Shown: piece by piece, positions 14,297 to 22,462 of the stretch | Numbering within the stretch: the stretch's first letter is position 1 | Layout: each line of letters begins with the position of its first letter | Origin: a virus | Virus record (IMG/VR): IMGVR_UViG_3300038409_000040 | Span: 1 to 22,462 of that record | Direction: 5' to 3' (one strand) | Length of the DNA: 22,462 nt | Notes under the pieces: generated by a model | Told to the model about the DNA's origin: nothing | The model's database searches: none | What the model saw: only the letters and a program-made list of their open reading frames with translations | Translations under genes and position numbers: made by a program

Positions 14297-15154
14297 CTAT
14301 AGTCGGTTGCGCCTCTTGAGCAGCCACATGTAACGACTCAGCTGGGCCGATGGCGGCGGTTCCTCTGGGAATGTTAGTGATGCGTTGAATGAGAGCCCCG
14401 CGCTGAACGACTTGAGCACCTTCTTTGTGAGCGTACCAGTGAAGGCAAGAGCCGCCGCGCCGCCAATCCTGGCACGCTTACTGAGATCCCCTGCGAACGA
14501 CAGCGACGCGGTGAACGCCCTGCGAACGAGCGTCTGGCGACTGAGCAGACCAGTGAACGACAGGCCGCCCGCGAGTGACTTCTTGACCGCGCGTGGTGGT
14601 GTAGCCCCCGTGAACGTGAGGTTGGCCGCCAGCGCCTTCTTGGGCCTCTTAGCCAGCGCCCCAGAGAACGATAGCGACGCCGTGAGTGACTTGAGCACCT
14701 TCCTGGTTGTGGTCAGCACCCCGCTGAATGCGAGTCCCGCCGCGAGGGCCTTCTTGGCCTTGCGCGAGATCGCGCCGCTGAATGTGAGGCTGGCCGCCAG
14801 CGCCTTCTTGGGCTTCTTGGCCAGCGCCCCAGAGAACGACAGCGACGCCGTGATTGACTTGAGCACCTTCCTGGTTGTGGTCAGCGCCCCGCTGAACGAG
14901 AGCCCCGCCGCGAGCGCCTTCTTGGCCTTGCGCGAGATCGCGCCGCTGAACGACAGCCCCGCGGCCAGGGGCTTCTTGGCCTTGCGCGTGATCGCGGCGC
15001 TGAACGACAGCCCCCCGGCCAGGGGCTTCTTGGCCTTGCGCGTGATCGCGCCGCTGAACGTCAGCCCAGCGCTGAGCGCCTGCTGCACCAAGTTGCGCCT
15101 TGGTGGTGCAGTGGAAACGATGCTGCCGTGGAATGAGCGCGCGAGGCGGGCCAT
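14297..15154 (-). CDS. Tandem-repeat protein, about 13 SFSG-type units, unknown role
   Basis: This 285-residue protein is built almost entirely from repeats of 16-20 residues with consensus ALAAGLSFSGAISRKAKK. The start is ATG at 15154 in a TGATG overlap with the upstream gene, and the open frame further upstream is not used. Each unit has a short beta-strand (GLSFSG) followed by a basic segment ending in KK or RK, so the whole protein is highly positively charged. About 13 units span residues 25-260, and some are arranged as a 56-residue super-repeat. The last 25 residues (RYMWLLKRRNRL) are different and strongly basic. It sits among small beta-rich virion-type genes and before the packaging block. 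A surface-fibre or DNA- or envelope-binding role is possible. No catalytic motif is visible, and the function is unknown. Confidence 0.85.
   Translation of the reverse strand: MARLARSFHGSIVSTAPPRRNLVQQALSAGLTFSGAITRKAKKPLAGGLSFSAAITRKAKKPLAAGLSFSGAISRKAKKALAAGLSFSGALTTTRKVLKSITASLSFSGALAKKPKKALAASLTFSGAISRKAKKALAAGLAFSGVLTTTRKVLKSLTASLSFSGALAKRPKKALAANLTFTGATPPRAVKKSLAGGLSFTGLLSRQTLVRRAFTASLSFAGDLSKRARIGGAAALAFTGTLTKKVLKSFSAGLSFNASLTFPEEPPPSAQLSRYMWLLKRRNRL
14369..15082. repeat. Tandem coding repeats with 54-bp unit and 168-bp super-repeat
   Basis: The array is clear at DNA level. For example GGCCAGGGGCTTCTTGGCCT recurs exactly 54 bases apart (starting 14963 and 15017), and the word GACTTGAGCACCTTCCTGGT recurs exactly 168 bases apart (starting 14688 and 14856). 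The 168-bp block encodes three units (20, 18 and 18 residues). Units in the outer part (14369-14600) have diverged more. The repeats are in frame throughout and are not a CRISPR array. Confidence 0.93.
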
Positions 15155-15882
15155 CAGAAGCTGCTGGCGCGGTTGACGGCCTGCGCGATCATGGCTGGCA
15201 ATGGTCCGCGGCCCGCTGGTGCTCCTTCGGCGGGCTCCAGCGCGATGAGGGCGGCGCAGATCGAGGCCGGTGCCGGTGATAGCGTCGCGGTCGCATTCCC
15301 GGTCGCGCCCTGCGTCGCCTGCGCTGCATGCGCGAAACCTGTAGCGTTTTGGTCCCACAGCTCGGTGAGGGCTCCGGGGCTCGTCGCGGTAGTCCATGCG
15401 GAAAATGCCACGGCGGTACCCGCGCCCGCGACCGCCAGGCCGATCTGGCAGCCATCGACCGTGGTCGTGAATCCCGTGACCGTTGCGGGGCTCGTCGTGG
15501 TGTTGCCGGTGGCCGTCTGGTTGAACGGGCTACCGGTGGCCTTCACGCCCGAGTAATCGAAGATCCTCGCTTCGAGGATGATCGACGTGCCGCCCGCGCC
15601 GCTCAGCGTCACCGTAGGTGCCGTATCGCCGGGCACCATCCGGCGGTAGTAGACGTGGATCCCCGACGCACCGGACGAGCGCGTGTCGGTGAGTTCGGGG
15701 CCAAGCGTCCAACCGGCCGACACGCTTACGCTGCCCGCCGCCTCCGTGCCGGCGGCTTCTCCCTGACCGATGACGAGGAGCGACAGGTCGCCCTCCGCCC
15801 AGGACGCGTAAAGCGCAGGCGTGATATTGCCATTGCCGGTGCGCGTCGCGACAGTGCCAGCGCCCTTGTAGGTAACCGACAC
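15154..15882 (-). CDS. Beta-rich virion-type protein, possible tail or surface component
   Basis: This 242-residue protein starts with GTG at 15882 and is made of short beta-strands rich in Gly, Ala, Thr and Ser. It opens MSVTYKGAGTVATRTGNGN and continues with PALYASWAEGDLSLLVIG, SAGWTLGPEL and IHVYYRRMVPGDTAPTVTLS. This pattern, with a segment on large or small magnitude of a signal followed by a Trp strand and a Pro-Thr-Val-Thr strand, recurs in phage structural proteins with jelly-roll or Ig-like folds. No membrane segment is present. It is placed with several other small beta-sandwich-like genes near the lysin gene, so a surface decoration or tail attachment role is likely, but the exact family was not recognised. 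Confidence 0.8.
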   Translation of the reverse strand: MSVTYKGAGTVATRTGNGNITPALYASWAEGDLSLLVIGQGEAAGTEAAGSVSVSAGWTLGPELTDTRSSGASGIHVYYRRMVPGDTAPTVTLSGAGGTSIILEARIFDYSGVKATGSPFNQTATGNTTTSPATVTGFTTTVDGCQIGLAVAGAGTAVAFSAWTTATSPGALTELWDQNATGFAHAAQATQGATGNATATLSPAPASICAALIALEPAEGAPAGRGPLPAMIAQAVNRASSF

Positions 15883-15920: not shown

Positions 15921-16379
15921 TTATCCTTCTTCGAACTCCATGTACCCCTGGCAGTTCACCGCCGCTGGAGCGGTCACGCGCACCACAATGGCATCGGCGG
16001 TCGTTACCTGCTCCGGCTCGCGACCAAGCGGGAACTGGATGGTGAGACCGGCCTGTGGGTGCACCAGCCACCGCTTGATGGCCGTGAGCGTGGTTGGCTC
16101 GGCTGTGAAGTTGCGCTTGGCGGTTGCCTGGGCGGTGCGGGTTGGACCGCCGCTCTGCACGATGGTGTGAGTGGTCGCGGTCCCGGCTCCGGCCTCGGTG
16201 GACAGCATGAGTTCGATGGTCACGGGCTCCGCGGAGGCCGACACCCCGTCGAAGGACACACTCAGCTCGATGATGCGAACCACGGAGTTGGCCGCATTGA
16301 TGACCGACAGGATGGTCTTGGCCGTGGCAGCGGTGAGCGCGATGTCTCCCGCGGACTCGACCGTGTACCTCGCGGCCAC
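15921..16379 (-). CDS. Small beta-rich protein, probable virion component
   Basis: This 152-residue protein starts with GTG at 16379, three bases after the stop of the previous gene, with a GGGGG run upstream. It opens MAARYTVESAGDIALTAATA and continues with SVVRIIELSVSFDGVSASAE and a closing IVVRVTAPAAVNCQGYMEFEE, alternating strands with very few charged residues. Proteins of this type (a strand-rich single domain carrying a VSFDGV-like motif) are often encoded near phage structural genes and may decorate the head. No enzymatic residue stands out. A 38-base gap separates it from the gene downstream, with no other feature visible. Confidence 0.78.
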   Translation of the reverse strand: MAARYTVESAGDIALTAATAKTILSVINAANSVVRIIELSVSFDGVSASAEPVTIELMLSTEAGAGTATTHTIVQSGGPTRTAQATAKRNFTAEPTTLTAIKRWLVHPQAGLTIQFPLGREPEQVTTADAIVVRVTAPAAVNCQGYMEFEEG

Positions 16380-16382
16380 GGC

Positions 16383-16886
16383 TCAGCCCCCGGCGTTGAT
16401 GGTGAGCGTGTAGGTGAACTCGATGCTGGTGGACGTGTCCACGTTGATGGCAGCGAACACCCGGCGATCCCACATCGGCGCGCCGGACGCGTTCTTGAAC
16501 AGCCCCCACTCGGTGACCGCGAAGCTGCCGCCGTACGTGATGGTCGCAACCGAGCGGTACTGGCCCGCGGACGGGTTGGACTTGGTTCCCGCAACGCGAG
16601 AGCCGCCGGTTGGGGTCTGCAGCGCGGTGTCGCCGATGGCCGCGGCCGTGGTTCCGGTGCCGGTGTCCTGCTGGTTGTACATCTGGAAGTTGGTTCCCGA
16701 CCCGAAGTCGGTGGCCATGTCGTTCACGCCAGCCGTCGTCACCAGGCCCGAGCCCAGATCGTGGTCCGCGATCAGCTCACCGTTGCGGAACACCCGAGCG
16801 CGCAGGTGCGTCGAGAACACCTGATCGGCGGTGAGGATGGCCTCACCGCGGTCGCGCACCAGCACCCACTTACCGAATCGCCGCAT
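16383..16886 (-). CDS. Beta-rich protein, probable virion or tail-associated component
   Basis: This 167-residue protein is read from ATG 16886, which has GGAAGG nine bases upstream. An in-frame ATG three codons earlier (16895) is possible but lacks a site. It overlaps the short gene upstream by 17 bases. The sequence has a basic N-terminus (MRRFGKWVLVRDRGEA), then beta-type segments such as HLRARVFRNGELIADHDLGS, FGSGTNFQMYNQQDTGTGTT and FAVTEWGLFKNASG, ending IEFTYTLTINAGG. The motif YGGSFAVTEWGLF with a later FTYTLT strand is common in phage proteins that form a small trimeric or jelly-roll head. The role is inferred from fold type and neighbours. Confidence 0.78.
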   Translation of the reverse strand: MRRFGKWVLVRDRGEAILTADQVFSTHLRARVFRNGELIADHDLGSGLVTTAGVNDMATDFGSGTNFQMYNQQDTGTGTTAAAIGDTALQTPTGGSRVAGTKSNPSAGQYRSVATITYGGSFAVTEWGLFKNASGAPMWDRRVFAAINVDTSTSIEFTYTLTINAGG

Positions 16887-17028
16887 TGAGCACATCCTTC
16901 CAGGTCTTGTAGCCGCGGGGCTCCTTGAGGTGCTTGGTGCGGCGCACGGGGTTGAGCAGCTTCTTGATGGGGCCGTGCTTGATCACGCGCGCGTGCAGCA
17001 CACCCTCGAACGAGAGGTCGCCGTCCAT
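16870..17028 (-). CDS. 52-residue protein with one SFEG motif, similar to the repeat protein's unit
   Basis: This short gene is missed by length-filtered calling. ATG at 17028 overlaps the previous stop as TAATG and has a GGAGAGG site five bases upstream. TAA at 16872-16870 ends it inside the next gene. The protein begins MDGDLSFEGVLHARVIKHGP, then a basic stretch with KKLL and RRTKHLK, ending WKDVLNAAIR. LSFEGVLHARVIKH matches the unit pattern of the 285-residue repeat protein (a strand LSFxGxL followed by a basic segment). Coupling on both sides and the clear ribosome site support real expression. The function is unknown. Confidence 0.78.
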   Translation of the reverse strand: MDGDLSFEGVLHARVIKHGPIKKLLNPVRRTKHLKEPRGYKTWKDVLNAAIR

Positions 17029-17378
17029 TACGCCTCTCCGTTGAGGTAGGCGTCCAGGCTGGACGAGTTGGCGCTGACGTTGAGGCGGACCCAGGCCACG
17101 TTGTCCTCGGGGGCCAGGAACAGGCTCACCCCAGCGCCAGCCGCGACGACCTGTCCCGTGGTCACGTACGAGCCGTTGCCGGGTGGGCGCACGCCCGCCG
17201 TGGCCCAGCCCAGCGCCCCGGCGGGGTCGGCGGTGACCTCCACCGTGAACGTGACGCTGGTGCCGCCGGTCGCCTTGCCGAAGATGCTCAGCGCGGTGAG
17301 GTTGCGAACGTCCACCTTCTGCTGCGCGCCAGTGCCGGTGACGGCCGCGGCGAGGGACTTCTGGTCAAGGAACGGCAT
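17028..17378 (-). CDS. Small beta-sandwich-like protein, probable virion component
   Basis: This 116-residue protein is read from ATG 17378, in a TAATG overlap with the lysin stop. The open frame upstream is a shadow of the lysin gene. It begins MPFLDQKSLAAAVTGTGAQQ and alternates strands: VDVRNLTALSIFGKATGG, VTFTVEVTADPAG, GVSLFLAPEDNVAWVRLNVS. It has almost no basic residues and no cysteine. It looks like a single beta-sandwich of the kind seen in capsid decoration or tail-associated proteins. It is one of five small beta-rich genes around the lysin. No family was assigned. Confidence 0.78.
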   Translation of the reverse strand: MPFLDQKSLAAAVTGTGAQQKVDVRNLTALSIFGKATGGTSVTFTVEVTADPAGALGWATAGVRPPGNGSYVTTGQVVAAGAGVSLFLAPEDNVAWVRLNVSANSSSLDAYLNGEA

Positions 17379-17977
17379 TAGTCCTCCCAGCCGTGGACGG
17401 CGTACCACTTGGCGTAGTTGAGCACCCGCTTGAATGGGTAGAACGCGCCGGGGTCGGTGTGGTTGGTGCCCAGGCCCAGCGCGCCGAGCGCGCGGTGGGT
17501 GGTCCAGCCCGGCCGCACCACGTTGCCGGAGCGCGTCACGATTGCCTCCTGCAGCGGAAGCCCGAACTCGTGGAAGATGTACGCCATCCAGCGCGCCGTC
17601 TGGCGGAGCTGCTTGTCGCGTCCGAGCCACGTCTTGAGGGCGAACTTGGCGTAGCCGATCTGCTCGATGCCAACCGAGCAGTAGTTCATGCCGCCGACGT
17701 GCGGGGCGGTGTTGAGCAGGCTGACCGCGTACGCTGAGTTGGCGTCCTTGTCGACCACCACGTGAGCCGAGCCACCGGACGATGGGTTCTTCCACCACTG
17801 GATGACGCCGCCGAGATCCTTCACGCCCGGGTAGTCGTGGGATTCAGTGGAGTGCAGCACGCCCAGCGTGAGGTCCGCGATGCGCGTGCGGCCGTTGCGG
17901 TTGAAGCGGGCCGTGCTCAGGGTTCCGCGCGCATCGAGCGCAATCTTTGGCATGTGAACCGCTGGCAGGTGTGACAT
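17378..17977 (-). CDS. N-acetylmuramoyl-L-alanine amidase endolysin
   Basis: This 199-residue Amidase_2-type enzyme cleaves the bond between N-acetylmuramic acid and L-alanine in peptidoglycan. It starts with ATG at 17977, with GAGGT upstream. Likely zinc ligands are His 42 (LGVLHSTES), His 161 (WTTHRALG) and Asp 175 (HTDPG). Glu 105 in SVGIEQIG sits where the family places a conserved acidic residue. SAHVVVDKD (70-78) is the usual strand after the first motif. The enzyme fills the whole length, and no separate cell-wall-binding domain or signal peptide is seen, so a holin would be needed for release. No holin-like gene with membrane segments was found next to it. The gene lies just downstream of the tRNA. 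Confidence 0.93.
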   Translation of the reverse strand: MSHLPAVHMPKIALDARGTLSTARFNRNGRTRIADLTLGVLHSTESHDYPGVKDLGGVIQWWKNPSSGGSAHVVVDKDANSAYAVSLLNTAPHVGGMNYCSVGIEQIGYAKFALKTWLGRDKQLRQTARWMAYIFHEFGLPLQEAIVTRSGNVVRPGWTTHRALGALGLGTNHTDPGAFYPFKRVLNYAKWYAVHGWED

Positions 17978-18004
17978 GTTGCTACCTCGCTGTCGAAAGC
18001 TGGA

Positions 18005-18076
18005 TGGCGCTGGCCGGAATCGAACCGGCTGCCTCCGGGTAATGAACCCGGCGAGCTACCAATGCTCCACAGCGCG
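18005..18076 (-). tRNA. tRNA-Met (CAT anticodon), initiator-like
   Basis: A full cloverleaf folds on the minus strand: acceptor arm CGCGCTG/CAGCGCC, D arm GAGC-ATTGGTA-GCTC, anticodon arm CCGGG-TTCATTA-CCCGG and T arm GCCGG-TTCGATT-CCGGC, with a five-base variable loop. The anticodon is CAT. It has three marks of bacterial initiators: an unpaired 1:72 position (C1 with C72), an A11:U24 pair in the D stem, and three G-C pairs next to the anticodon loop. The CCA end is not encoded at the proper place; TCCA follows base 73. It lies 27 bases upstream of the lysin start and 8 bases after the gene upstream. Confidence 0.93.
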
Positions 18077-18084
18077 ACGAACTT

Positions 18085-18453
18085 CTAGGTACCGATGAAC
18101 GCCACCCGTGCGGTGTACGTGCTCAGGTCGGCGGCCGAGGTAACTTCCTTGTGGGACGTGTCCACGGTTGCCGCGGTCTCGTACGCCTGCACGGTGACCT
18201 GGGTCCTGGCCGCGTTCGGGCGAATGATGAGGCCCACGCTGAGCGTCCCCGAGGAGGCGCGGTTCTGCGCGTGCTCCAGGATCAGCGCGCCCTGGATGGT
18301 GTTCCATCCGAGGCTGGCCGCGGTGATGACCTCACCCGTGGTCAGGTACGCGGAGTCGAACGTGATGTCGTACACCCGGCACTTGTACCCCATGAAGTCG
18401 CTTTCCCAGATGGTCTGGTTCGGGGTGGAGACCGGCGTAACGGTCATTGACAT
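18085..18453 (-). CDS. Small beta-rich protein, probable virion component
   Basis: This 122-residue protein starts with ATG at 18453 in a TAATG overlap with the upstream stop. A second in-frame ATG two codons in (18447) is possible. The segment CRVYDITFDSAYLTTGEVIT (residues 25-44), followed by AASLGWNTIQGALILEH, resembles a frequent phage structural family that carries DVTFDxSYPTGGExLT and a strand-rich remainder. The rest is TLSVGLIIRPNAARTQVTVQ and a closing TYTARVAFIGT. It is likely a decoration or minor structural protein. It sits immediately before the tRNA. Confidence 0.8.
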   Translation of the reverse strand: MSMTVTPVSTPNQTIWESDFMGYKCRVYDITFDSAYLTTGEVITAASLGWNTIQGALILEHAQNRASSGTLSVGLIIRPNAARTQVTVQAYETAATVDTSHKEVTSAADLSTYTARVAFIGT

Positions 18454-19013: not shown

Positions 19014-19265
19014 CTACAAAACATTGTGGCTCGCCCCCCAAATGGTGTAGTGCATGCGTGAGAGCGCTTCGAGATCCGTGAGTAGTTGGTACAGCGACGG
19101 AATGTCCGCGTGCGAACGCTTGGTAGGCGTGTCGATCACATCGCCAAACCCATTCACGGCGGGGGGCTTGAGCAGGAACGAGAAGTGTGTCTTGCCGTGG
19201 CGCTCCTCCAGCGTGAGGATGTAATCGTCGCGGTCGATGACCGTGCGGTGCGATGAGAGGTTCAT
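19014..19265 (-). CDS. 83-residue hypothetical protein
   Basis: This small protein starts with ATG at 19265, with GGAGG nine bases upstream, and overlaps the metalloprotease stop by four bases. The sequence is MNLSSHRTVIDRDDYILTLE, then HGKTHFSFLLKPPAVNGFGD and a C-terminal helix LYQLLTDLEALSRMHYTIWG. It resembles a single small alpha/beta domain with no cysteine and no membrane segment. Its tight coupling suggests a partner of the protease, for example an inhibitor or specificity factor, but that is speculation from position only. Confidence 0.75.
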   Translation of the reverse strand: MNLSSHRTVIDRDDYILTLEERHGKTHFSFLLKPPAVNGFGDVIDTPTKRSHADIPSLYQLLTDLEALSRMHYTIWGASHNVL

Positions 19266-19708
19266 TGCGGCATCCTCCAGTAGGGGCGGAATGAGGCGGT
19301 CGCGACCCGCGCGTTACGCGCGTCGCACGGCGGCCAGTAGTCAATCAGCACCGGGTACATGATGTCGGTCGGGTCGTCTACGTGTTGCTTGCCCATGAGG
19401 TGGCCCCACTCGTGCCCGATGAGGCGGCACACCTGGCGAGGGCGGTTCATGACCTCGATGAGGCACTCCTGCGGTGACGCGATCCCGATGACGTTGGACG
19501 GCATCACCGACAGCCACTCGCTGTCGCGCCGAGTGCGGATCACGCGGATGCGCGGGTTACCGCACGGTGGGGTGCCCCAGTACGCCCGCGACACCGCGAC
19601 GGCCGCGCGCGCGGCCGGGGGCGACGCGCCGCGGGCGTGATCGTTCAGCACCACGAGGATGTAGGCCACCACCCACACCCACACCACCCCAAGGATCCAC
19701 CAGCGCAT
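19262..19708 (-). CDS. Membrane-anchored metzincin-type zinc metalloprotease
   Basis: This 148-residue protein starts with ATG at 19708, with GGAGGTGG upstream and a TGATG overlap with the previous gene; the frame upstream is a shadow. Residues 3-21 are a hydrophobic segment (WWILGVVWVWVVAYILVVL) that anchors or exports the rest. The zinc site is HEWGHLMGKQH (99-109), which fits HExxHxxGxxH exactly, with Glu 100 as catalytic base. The Met-turn DIMYP (115-119) follows at a matrixin-like distance. Four cysteines (49, 82, 94, 128) could form two disulfides outside the cytoplasm. At 148 residues it is shorter than usual catalytic domains of about 165. It may cut host envelope or virion proteins, or assist lysis. 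The target is unknown. Confidence 0.8.
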   Translation of the reverse strand: MRWWILGVVWVWVVAYILVVLNDHARGASPPAARAAVAVSRAYWGTPPCGNPRIRVIRTRRDSEWLSVMPSNVIGIASPQECLIEVMNRPRQVCRLIGHEWGHLMGKQHVDDPTDIMYPVLIDYWPPCDARNARVATASFRPYWRMPQ

Positions 19709-19941
19709 CACGCCACCTCCGCCAGCTTGAGCATGGCGTCGAGCGCGTTGCGCAGCGCGATAGCGTCGTGGAAGGTGTGCGCCGTGATCACTCCGCCATT
19801 GAGGTCGCGGCTCACGTGGAGGTTCACGTCGATGTCCACCGAGAAGGTGTTGGTGCCTCGGTCCGAGCCGTCGTGCGCGAACTTCACGCTCGCGGTCGGG
19901 CTGGACCACGCGAAGGTGCGCGTGTGGGACGGTGGGATCAC
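19708..19941 (-). CDS. 77-residue hypothetical beta-rich protein
   Basis: The gene starts with GTG at 19941, with AGGAGGAAC eight bases upstream and a GTGA overlap with the previous stop. The frame continues upstream but is a shadow of the zinc-ribbon gene. The protein begins MIPPSHTRTFAWSSPTASVK and has a two-strand pattern (NTFSVDIDVNLHVSRDLNGG) followed by a helix (TFHDAIALRNALDAMLKLAE). Its stop overlaps the metalloprotease start. It is not recognised. It could be a small partner of the neighbouring protease. Confidence 0.72.
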   Translation of the reverse strand: MIPPSHTRTFAWSSPTASVKFAHDGSDRGTNTFSVDIDVNLHVSRDLNGGVITAHTFHDAIALRNALDAMLKLAEVA

Positions 19942-20369
19942 GTCAGTTCCTCCTGGTTGTTGATCACGTCCGACCACGTCTCGGGCACCGGCTCGCCCGC
20001 GCGCAGCGCCTTGATCCTGGCTCGCTTTAGTGCCGCGAGTGTGCGCACGTACTTGTCGCGCAGCGCCGGGTCCTTTTGGATACAGAGCACGCACGTCGAT
20101 GCCAGGCCCGCCGCGGGCCGCACCGGAAAGCCGCACACGTTGCAGTCCGGGTACTTGTCCGGATCCATCGGGATCGGGGTGCACTCGTCGCACGTGGTGT
20201 AGTTCGTGCGCACGGGGTAGAACTCCTTGCCGCACGTGCCGCAGTCCTTCTTCATGTGCGGTCGGTACGTGGTGTCGCGGATGATCTGGCAGACCGGGCA
20301 GAGCGCCCTCAGCTTGTTGATCTTCGCGAACGTTGCCCCGCACGCGCACGTGCCTGTGGGGAATGCCAT
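19938..20369 (-). CDS. Triple zinc-ribbon protein, putative nucleic acid-binding
   Basis: This 143-residue protein is the first gene of the long leftward operon. ATG at 20369 has a strong AGGAGGAG site just upstream. Twelve cysteines form three successive four-Cys sites: Cys 8, 10, 24, 27; Cys 43, 46, 60, 63; and Cys 76, 79, 93, 96. The spacing of about 33 residues shows tandem zinc ribbons, probably by duplication. The C-terminal 40 residues form a basic helix (YVRTLAALKRARIKALRAG). This resembles small phage zinc-ribbon proteins thought to bind DNA, RNA or RNA polymerase. Being promoter-proximal, it could regulate the operon. The exact role is not known. Confidence 0.83.
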   Translation of the reverse strand: MAFPTGTCACGATFAKINKLRALCPVCQIIRDTTYRPHMKKDCGTCGKEFYPVRTNYTTCDECTPIPMDPDKYPDCNVCGFPVRPAAGLASTCVLCIQKDPALRDKYVRTLAALKRARIKALRAGEPVPETWSDVINNQEELT

Positions 20370-20819: not shown

Positions 20820-20920
20820 AGCGTCACTCCGTTGGGGGATCTTTGCCCCCGGTGGCGCTGCAGTCCTGTACCGTGGGTGGCGCGGGGAGACATCCCGCCC
20901 CACCGAACAGGAGGACAGAC

Positions 20921-21907
20921 ATGCAGCACGACGACGATACCCGCATGCAGCGGCACAACGTGCCGCGCGCATGGCGGTCACCGACGATGTTCCGGGAGTG
21001 GATTGGCCGCGCCTACACGGGCGGGGAGTCCTCGCTGCTCCCGCATCAGCCGCGGCGTGACGGAGACTGCACGCCTCACGCGACCGCGGATGCGCCGCTC
21101 GCGCCACTCGGCTCGCCCGAGACACGGGAGCAGCGCCGCATCCGCGCGGCCCGCGCCTACGTCGGCGCGCCATCCGCACCCCTGATCACCATCACCGGGG
21201 CCACGGGAGGCGCGATCACGCGCACCATCGGCGCGCCACCGGACCATGAGCGCGAGCTAGTCACGCGCATCCCCGGTCCGCTGGGCGTCATCGTGCGCAC
21301 GCCGCGCCCGCCATCGGATCCCGAGACGGAGAACGGACGCCGCGCGCATCACCGGGCCGCCGAGCAGCACCGCCGCAAGGTGCGCGCGGCCGTTGACGCC
21401 GCGCTTAGCGCTCCCGGCATGCGCCCGACGCCCACGCCCGCGATCAAGCGCGCGCCGAACGCTCGCGCGGCCGTGGCCGCGGCGGAGTACGAGCAGGCAT
21501 GCCTGCTCGGAGTCGAGACCATCGGCGGGCACCCCCGCCTGGAGCGGCACGGAGCGGCCCCGCGTCACGCACCGCGCGTGTCGCACGATCCCAGCCCCGT
21601 GATCCCGCGCATGGCCGCGGGCGAGTGGTTCGCCCGACTCTACCGGGCGAACGACGTGCTGCGAGGCGCGCTAGTCATCGACTCGCGCGCGCGATCCGCC
21701 GCGCGATCCCGGCATCACGACCACGTGACTCGCGAGCGGACGCCGCTTGCGCAGTCGCGCGAGCCCGTCACGGCCGCCATGGCCGCGCTGGTGCTGGCCG
21801 CGGAGCAGGCATCCGCGGACGGGAAGTCCCCCGTCTCCGCGGCACGCGGCGCATGGCGCGACGTTCCCCGCCGACCGCGAGCCGTGCGCGAGCCATCGGC
21901 CGCGTAG
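20921..21907 (+). CDS. Arg/Ala-rich 328-residue hypothetical protein
   Basis: The first rightward gene starts with ATG at 20921, with a perfect AGGAGG (20909-20914) six bases before. The frame is open a further 342 bases upstream, but there it has no ribosome site and atypical content. The protein has 48 Arg but only 3 Lys, many Ala, Pro and His residues, and two Cys. Helical segments include TREQRRIRAARAYVG, AHHRAAEQHRRKVRAAVDAA, ARAAVAAAEYEQACLLG and AAMAALVLAAEQASADGK. Others look disordered. There is no membrane segment or known motif. High positive charge suggests nucleic acid binding. It is followed by a terminator. No family recognised. Confidence 0.75.
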   Translation: MQHDDDTRMQRHNVPRAWRSPTMFREWIGRAYTGGESSLLPHQPRRDGDCTPHATADAPLAPLGSPETREQRRIRAARAYVGAPSAPLITITGATGGAITRTIGAPPDHERELVTRIPGPLGVIVRTPRPPSDPETENGRRAHHRAAEQHRRKVRAAVDAALSAPGMRPTPTPAIKRAPNARAAVAAAEYEQACLLGVETIGGHPRLERHGAAPRHAPRVSHDPSPVIPRMAAGEWFARLYRANDVLRGALVIDSRARSAARSRHHDHVTRERTPLAQSREPVTAAMAALVLAAEQASADGKSPVSAARGAWRDVPRRPRAVREPSAA

Positions 21908-21923
21908 CCTCCCCCGTAGCATG

Positions 21924-21948
21924 AAGCCCCGCCCATCCGGCGGGGCTT
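21924..21948 (+). terminator. Intrinsic terminator-like hairpin after the 328-residue gene
   Basis: AAGCCCCGCC (21924-21933) pairs perfectly with GGCGGGGCTT (21939-21948) around a five-base loop, 17 bases past the stop. The following bases (CCTAG) lack a good T-run, so termination may be partial. Confidence 0.75.
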
Positions 21949-21960
21949 CCTAGTGCGGGA

Positions 21961-22003
21961 CGGACGCCTAGCCTCACCATCCGGCCCACTACTGAGAGAC
22001 CAC
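21961..22003 (+). repeat. Second copy of the 43-bp upstream element
   Basis: This copy matches the element at 20777-20819 and lies about 45-85 bases before the 88-residue gene. It is followed by a CCCCGC/GCGGGG hairpin (22009-22025) and a GGGAGGA ribosome site. The same order of element, hairpin and ribosome site occurs at both copies. Confidence 0.65.
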
Positions 22004-22047
22004 GGCTGCCCCGCCGGTTGCGGGGTGGCGCGAACTAGGGAGGAACA

Positions 22048-22314
22048 TTGCACGCGAAGCGCAAAGCGCATCCTCCGTCGCGCGTGGGACATGCCATTGT
22101 CGGGCGTCGCGGCGTCCGGGCGTCATCGTCCGGGGCATTCGTGGCGCGCGCTCGTGACACCGATAATCGTCGTCACGAGACGATGGCCGCGGAACACGCC
22201 GCGGACGTGTTGATGCGCGGGGTTCGCGCGTCCGGCGCGTACATCGACCCAATGACCCACGACCGCGTGACGCTGGATGACCGGATCATGCGAGTGATAG
22301 GGGGCAAGCGGTGA
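22048..22314 (+). CDS. 88-residue basic hypothetical protein
   Basis: The start is TTG at 22048, because GGGAGG lies four bases upstream and no ATG is available nearby. The first 30 residues are very basic (HAKRKAHPPSRVGHAIVGRR). The second half looks like a small globular helix-rich domain with AAEHAADVLMRGVRASGAYI and a C-terminal DDRIMRVIGGKR. No family was recognised. An in-frame ATG at codon 46 (TMAAEH) would give a 43-residue product but lacks a ribosome site. The stop overlaps the next start as GTGA, so the two genes are translationally coupled. Confidence 0.65.
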   Translation: MHAKRKAHPPSRVGHAIVGRRGVRASSSGAFVARARDTDNRRHETMAAEHAADVLMRGVRASGAYIDPMTHDRVTLDDRIMRVIGGKR

Positions 22315-22412
22315 CGATTCACCTTACAGTCGGCAAGGTTCACCGCGAGCCCGTGGATTGCGCGGACCCGAAGAACCGGGCAATCCTGATAGCGGTGCTC
22401 GCGCGCCAGTAG
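22311..22412 (+). CDS. 33-residue small protein, coupled to the 88-residue gene
   Basis: GTG at 22311 overlaps the preceding stop (GTGA) and the frame ends with TAG at 22410. The product reads MTIHLTVGKVHREPVDCADP, then KNRAILIAVLARQ. It alternates hydrophobic and polar residues like a small beta-alpha unit. It lies between the coupled gene and a strong terminator nine bases on. Such small coupled genes are easily missed. Its reality is moderately supported. Confidence 0.5.
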   Translation: MTIHLTVGKVHREPVDCADPKNRAILIAVLARQ

Positions 22413-22420
22413 CGGTAAAG

Positions 22421-22448
22421 GAAAGCCACCCCAAATGGGGTGGCTTTC
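22421..22448 (+). terminator. Strong intrinsic terminator at the end of the rightward unit
   Basis: GAAAGCCACCCC (22421-22432) pairs perfectly with GGGGTGGCTTTC (22437-22448) around AAAT, with a T-rich end on the plus strand. The stem is symmetric, so it may also stop leftward transcription. The GCCACCCC/GGGGTGGC core is the same as in the terminator after the capsid gene. Confidence 0.9.
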
Positions 22449-22462
22449 TTGTGCCGCACGGC

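What the first reader, a model, noticed from the sequence alone, without database searches (positions are those of the whole stretch)
19262..19708. Phage-encoded membrane-anchored metzincin protease
A 148-residue frame combines an N-terminal hydrophobic segment, an exact HExxHxxGxxH zinc site (residues 99-109) and a Met-turn DIMYP (115-119). Established: this is the matrixin (M10-like) signature, rare in phages. Seen: four cysteines, a ribosome site and coupling to flanking genes. Inferred: it is exported to the periplasm or cell surface and cuts envelope, surface-layer or competing-phage receptor proteins, or helps lysis. It sits with two coupled small unknown genes (77 and 83 residues) that may form a protease module.
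Basis: partly seen in the sequence, partly recalled or inferred. Interest (0 to 1): 0.72.

Follow-up and report, generated by a model that had tools for sequence, protein, structure and literature searches.

The report
Small exported metzincin protease in phages
The phage gene very probably makes a small zinc protease that is exported out of the host cell; it belongs to a previously unlabelled family of compact enzymes found in many unrelated environmental phages and in soil bacteria related to Conexibacter, and it may help the phage weaken the cell envelope before release.

Summary
Window 19262-19708 (minus) encodes 148 aa with HEWGHLMGKQH (99-109), DIMYP (115-119), an N-terminal hydrophobic segment, four cysteines, a GGAGG site and short overlaps with both neighbours. 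It is a metzincin of matrixin type: all 22 aligned relatives hit Pfam matrixin (P0001 itself below cut-off), and a 95-aa relative models at pLDDT 91.6 and superposes on MMP catalytic domains (Z 8.5, 2.4 A, 88 residues). It belongs to a compact family of about 30 non-redundant members in unlike uncultured phages plus Thermoleophilia bacteria, not found by tblastn in 50,697 GenBank phages and unnamed in PHROGs. 28 of 32 keep all four cysteines; 49/82 and 94/128 are lost as pairs, implying two disulfides and an exported location. 'Rare in phages' is too strong: over 119 viral contigs carry the wider signature. The three-gene module is not supported. Lysins of several Pfam families lie within 2.5 kb in 8 of 17 records (2.6 expected), but the families were partly chosen after seeing neighbours. 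Best mechanism, inferred: an exported protease trimming host envelope proteins, probably helping lysis, like Listeria Mtz. Substrate, activity and host are untested. New variant of a known kind.

The parts
19262..19708 (-). Compact matrixin-type metzincin, 148 aa (P0001): hydrophobic N-terminus 4-22, catalytic domain about 30-130, HEWGHLMGKQH 99-109, Met-turn DIMYP 115-119, Cys 49/82/94/128
19355..19414 (-). DNA of the zinc site and Met-turn, HExGHxxGxxHx7MY
   Evidence: one match, none in 100 shuffles
19716..19720 (-). GGAGG ribosome-binding site, 7 bases before the ATG
19708..19941 (-). Upstream coupled gene, 77 aa, no known relatives; partnership with the protease not supported
19014..19265 (-). 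Downstream coupled gene, 83 aa, no known relatives; partnership with the protease not supported
17378..17977 (-). Endolysin, N-acetylmuramoyl-L-alanine amidase (Amidase_2), four genes downstream on the same strand; 31% identical to lysins near related metzincins in L128 and L130

Best explanation
The gene encodes an exported, compact metzincin (matrixin-type zinc endopeptidase). The hydrophobic N-terminus takes it through the Sec pathway and either anchors it or is cleaved; two disulfides (49-82 and 94-128) stabilise a domain of about 100 residues outside the membrane; His 99, 103 and 109 hold zinc above the Met-turn and Glu 100 activates water. It is made from the gene run that also holds the amidase endolysin and cuts host envelope or surface proteins late in infection, making the wall easier to lyse or removing proteins that hinder release. 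Shown: sequence signature, family conservation, MMP-like predicted fold of a 95-aa relative, cysteine pairing pattern, tight gene coupling. Inferred: activity, export, timing, substrate, lysis role.
For: All 22 family members hit PF00413 Matrixin, best E 5e-9; invariant catalytic residues. Model of the 95-aa relative L125: pLDDT 91.6, pTM 0.84; MMP-11 Z 8.5, rmsd 2.4 A, 88 aligned, and nearly all 50 rows shown are MMPs, karilysin or snapalysin. P0001 model pLDDT 74.7; top-50 rows are MMPs, karilysin and snapalysin, Z 6.3-7.0. Cysteines: 28 of 32 keep four; three lack both upstream ones and keep both downstream ones; L118 keeps the upstream pair and lacks both downstream ones (its first cysteine lies outside the automatic count and is seen in the sequence printed). 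Many relatives have plain signal peptides ending in AxA. Lysin Pfam hits near the gene: Amidase_2, NlpC/P60, CHAP, VanY/PG_binding; 8 of 17 records within 2.5 kb against 2.6 expected, P 0.002; after removing near relatives and the window 6 of 13 against 1.9, P 0.006. Precedent: a phage-derived secreted metzincin in Listeria cleaves a lipoprotein and sensitises cells to phage lysins (PMC8235301).
Against: The lysin families searched were partly picked from neighbours already seen, so the enrichment is biased upward. Several related phages carry the gene in what looks like an early or replication region instead. Three members have no signal peptide. P0001 lacks a clear AxA site. Foldseek E-values stay just above 0.001. 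No assay, no known substrate, host unknown. The nearest relatives of this phage by capsid (L003, L004) show no homologue in their fragments.
Confidence: 0.42

Rival explanations
1. Same exported metzincin, but it serves competition: it strips surface proteins used as receptors, blocking superinfection or stopping progeny from binding debris.
For: Membrane-anchored or secreted protease; small accessory gene in variable places and missing from the sequenced parts of near relatives.
Against: No receptor or exclusion gene nearby was identified; part of the family sits beside lysins.
Confidence: 0.2
2. A moron taken from the host: a secreted nutrient or niche protease of Thermoleophilia-type bacteria that phages carry and that benefits the infected or lysogenic cell rather than lysis.
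For: Full-length four-cysteine members occur in genomes of the Conexibacter class: 16 of 299 genomes match at E 1e-8, most over nearly the full length, against only motif-sized matches in 52 genomes of the class of a Myxococcales MAG. Phage and bacterial members do not form two clean clades (deep forks unsupported).
Against: In the window it lies inside a tightly coupled gene run upstream of the endolysin, not as an isolated moron with its own promoter and terminator; no integrase was noticed in the 22 kb.
Confidence: 0.23
3. A virion-linked or head-maturation protease acting inside the cell or during entry.
For: Downstream genes include virion-like proteins (by eye only, frames 18085-18453 and 15921-16895); a few relatives lack signal peptides.
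Against: N-terminal membrane segment and paired cysteines argue for the oxidising outside; to my knowledge the metzincin fold is not used by known prohead proteases.
Confidence: 0.08
4. Catalytically dead or decaying gene kept by chance.
For: A paralogue in record G010 lacks HExxH, so loss of the site happens in the family.
Against: In P0001 every invariant residue is intact, with an intact frame, ribosome site and couplings.
Confidence: 0.05

Closest known systems
Matrixins / MMP catalytic domain (Pfam PF00413, MEROPS M10A)
   Same: HExxHxxGxxH, Met-turn methionine 8 residues after the third His, superposable predicted fold
   Different: About 95-105 residues instead of about 160; the superposition starts at MMP residue 128, so the N-terminal strand region is missing; four conserved cysteines; no propeptide seen; P0001 is below the Pfam cut-off (20.1 against 24 bits)
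Snapalysin (M7, Streptomyces)
   Same: Small secreted actinobacterial metzincin; superposes with Z 7.6, 3.3 A, 89 residues
   Different: Third zinc ligand of snapalysin is Asp (general knowledge) where this family has His; 132 residues; no Pfam M7 hit for any member
Listeria Mtz-Tim pair (PMC8235301)
   Same: Phage-derived secreted metzincin, linked to sensitivity to phage lysins
   Different: Mtz has Met-turn AIMLD and a lipoprotein partner Tim; no lipoprotein partner in the window; relatedness of the sequences was not tested
Mini-zincins (Acel_2062, PF06262; abylysin, 4jiu)
   Same: Very small zincin domains of about 100-115 residues; abylysin Z 7.8 with 85 aligned (PMC3890501)
   Different: Asp- or Glu-zincin motifs and, for Acel_2062, no Met-turn; this family is a His-type metzincin with Met-turn

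Membership tests
Metzincin clan | HExxHxxGxxH/D zinc motif | tested here: met
   invariant in 22 relatives
Metzincin clan | Met-turn methionine after the third ligand | tested here: met
   M117 and Y118 invariant in 22 relatives
Metzincin clan | Metzincin fold | tested here: met
   predicted model of the 95-aa relative: Z 8.5, 2.4 A, 88 residues on MMP-11; P0001 model Z 7.0
Metzincin clan | Three His converge on one zinc ion | tested here: inconclusive
Matrixin (PF00413 / M10A) | Profile match over the curated cut-off | tested here: not met
   P0001 20.1 bits against 24; some relatives reach E 5e-9
Matrixin (PF00413 / M10A) | Full-length catalytic domain of about 160 residues | tested here: not met
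   about 100 residues; matches only profile positions 110-136 of 159
Snapalysin (M7) | Asp as third ligand, M7 profile | tested here: not met
   His 109; no M7 hit among 22 members
Listeria Mtz-Tim type system | Adjacent lipoprotein partner | tested here: not met
   neither coupled neighbour has a lipobox or signal peptide
Listeria Mtz-Tim type system | Exported protease that sensitises cells to lysins | not testable with these tools
   needs experiments

The most novel reading that the evidence does not exclude
A widespread, unrecognised class of phage lysis factor: exported mini-metzincins, down to 95 residues and among the smallest metzincins, that clear envelope proteins ahead of or together with the endolysin in phages of Thermoleophilia-type soil Actinomycetota.
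Probability: 0.27. Interest if true: 0.7.

Novelty: new variant of a known kind. Interest (0 to 1): 0.45.

Why it matters
It gives phage metzincins a defined family with a tight cysteine signature and a minimal fold, offers a very small protease scaffold with high model confidence, and makes it testable whether phages use proteases besides peptidoglycan hydrolases to open Gram-positive cells. It also gives a lead linking uncultured phages to Conexibacter-type hosts.

Tried and rejected
Two pattern scans of viral contigs and one of genome contigs used a pattern with miscounted N, and their empty results mean nothing; corrected patterns were checked on the window first. A single-protein search in viral contigs found nothing. 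The 'Acinetobacter phage MD-2021a' matrixin hits lie in bacterial chromosome (dnaK, purK) and were dropped. The match of the motif to fragilysin covers only the zinc site and does not suggest a toxin; nothing was fetched for it. The three-gene module was rejected. The lysozyme identity of the gene after the metzincin in L124 (seen by eye) was not confirmed and was not counted. Profile searches on the class of a Myxococcales MAG gave only motif-sized matches. A tree of 42 sequences left deep forks unresolved. No paper describing this family was found in the held library.

Full report
What is there. The frame at 19262-19708 on the minus strand is real: 148 residues, ATG start, GGAGG 7 bases upstream, TGATG overlap with the 77-residue gene before it and ATGA overlap with the 83-residue gene after it. 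The zinc motif HEWGHLMGKQH is at 99-109 and the Met-turn DIMYP at 115-119; the DNA pattern is unique in the window and absent from shuffles. The window is a whole viral record of 22,462 bases with terminase large subunit, portal, major head protein, HNH nuclease and an amidase endolysin, all on the minus strand. Its closest cultured capsid relatives are phages of Arthrobacter, Microbacterium and Cellulosimicrobium at about 30% identity.

What family it is. Alone, the protein gives only a sub-threshold Pfam matrixin match (20.1 bits, cut-off 24), no PHROG and no relative in 50,697 GenBank phages beyond a record that is bacterial chromosome; two relatives give the same result. A corrected motif pattern in IMG/VR returned more than 119 contigs. 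Among these, a distinct compact group resembles P0001 beyond the motif: 95-220 residues, most with a signal peptide or membrane segment, a helix ending in an aromatic-W-G stretch, four cysteines, and a consensus HExGHLxGxGHSxDPxSVMYP. In the alignment of 22 all catalytic positions are invariant. All 22 hit PF00413, the best at 5e-9, while PHROGs has essentially nothing. A second scan added more members with 20 kb flanks; 15 of 32 records hold a detectable terminase large subunit, so at least these are genuine and diverse phages.

Structure. P0001 models at pLDDT 74.7 and its best-ranked structural relatives are MMPs, karilysin and snapalysin (Z 6.3-7.0, residues 28-144). The shortest relative, L125 with 95 residues in total, models at pLDDT 91.6 and pTM 0.84 and superposes on MMP-11 with Z 8.5, 2.4 A over 88 residues; the rows shown are nearly all MMPs, karilysin or snapalysin. 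A Z near 8 can arise from a common arrangement alone, but motif, profile and fold agree.

Cysteines and export. Of 32 non-redundant members (31 from viruses, 1 bacterial) 28 keep four cysteines; three lack both 49- and 82-equivalents yet keep both 94- and 128-equivalents; L118 shows the reverse, having both upstream cysteines (sequence printed) and neither downstream one. Loss in pairs indicates disulfides 49-82 and 94-128, hence an oxidising compartment (inference). Many relatives end their hydrophobic segment with AxA, typical of signal peptidase I. P0001 itself has a longer hydrophobic run without a clear AxA, so anchoring and cleavage are both open.

Neighbourhood. The amidase endolysin lies four genes downstream. 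In related phages the metzincin gene lies close to lysins of other, unrelated Pfam families: NlpC/P60 (L125), CHAP (L131), Amidase_2 (L128, L130, L143), PG_binding with or without a weak VanY match (L141, L146), and a CHAP-like endolysin (L137). In 17 records with a detected lysin the gap is at most 2.5 kb in 8, against 2.6 expected at random (P 0.002); dropping near relatives and the window leaves 6 of 13 against 1.9 (P 0.006). The bias is plain: I chose the Pfam families partly after looking at neighbours. In contrast a clade including L127, L129, L133, L136, L138, L144 and L153 carries the gene among what look like early or replication genes (by eye). The coupled 77- and 83-residue genes are not found elsewhere.

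Distribution. A family-specific DNA pattern hit two contigs in 84,980 species genomes: a Conexibacter MAG on an ordinary-looking chromosomal stretch, and a Myxococcales protein of another type. A profile search over 299 genomes of the Conexibacter class (Thermoleophilia in NCBI taxonomy) matched 16, most over nearly the full length with the four cysteines; 52 genomes of the class of the Myxococcales MAG gave only motif-sized matches. So the family is shared by phages and Thermoleophilia bacteria; other classes were not searched by profile. The tree does not resolve who gave it to whom.

Mechanism and precedent. I consider an exported envelope protease that helps lysis most likely, at about 0.4, against receptor stripping (0.20), a host-derived moron (0.23), a virion role (0.08) and a dead gene (0.05). 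The published precedent is Listeria Mtz, a phage-derived secreted metzincin that cleaves the lipoprotein Tim and makes cells more sensitive to phage lysins (PMC8235301). No lipoprotein partner is present here, so it may work like Mtz but is not shown to be the same system.

Verdict. It is a new variant of a known kind: a compact two-disulfide matrixin-like family, unnamed in phage libraries, with a suggestive but unproven link to lysis.

Noticed in passing
L131 8128-8652 (minus), record G010: A second family member of 175 aa with signal peptide, cysteines and an AIMNP turn but without HExxH lies a few genes from the active copy: an apparent dead paralogue.
   Followed up: partly
window 18001-18077 (minus): tRNA-Met (anticodon CAT) between the endolysin and the next gene.
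   Followed up: no
window 14297-15397 (minus): Protein built of repeats like FSGAITRKAKKPLAAGLS, possibly fibre-like; no relatives in the fetched loci.
   Followed up: no
window 20900-22462: Coding strand appears to switch and G+C rises to 0.75; only weakly supported frames on the plus strand.
   Followed up: no
window 19938-20369 (minus): 143-aa protein with several CxxC pairs and a weak HNH-type match, first gene of the run.
   Followed up: no
CAKLQH020000026.1 in the phages collection (L002): Record labelled Acinetobacter phage reads as bacterial chromosome over the stretch shown (dnaK, grpE, purK).
   Followed up: yes
Viral contigs, L005-L123: Metzincins of many other architectures (lipoprotein-like, large proteins up to 3154 aa) are common in uncultured viral contigs.
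   Followed up: partly
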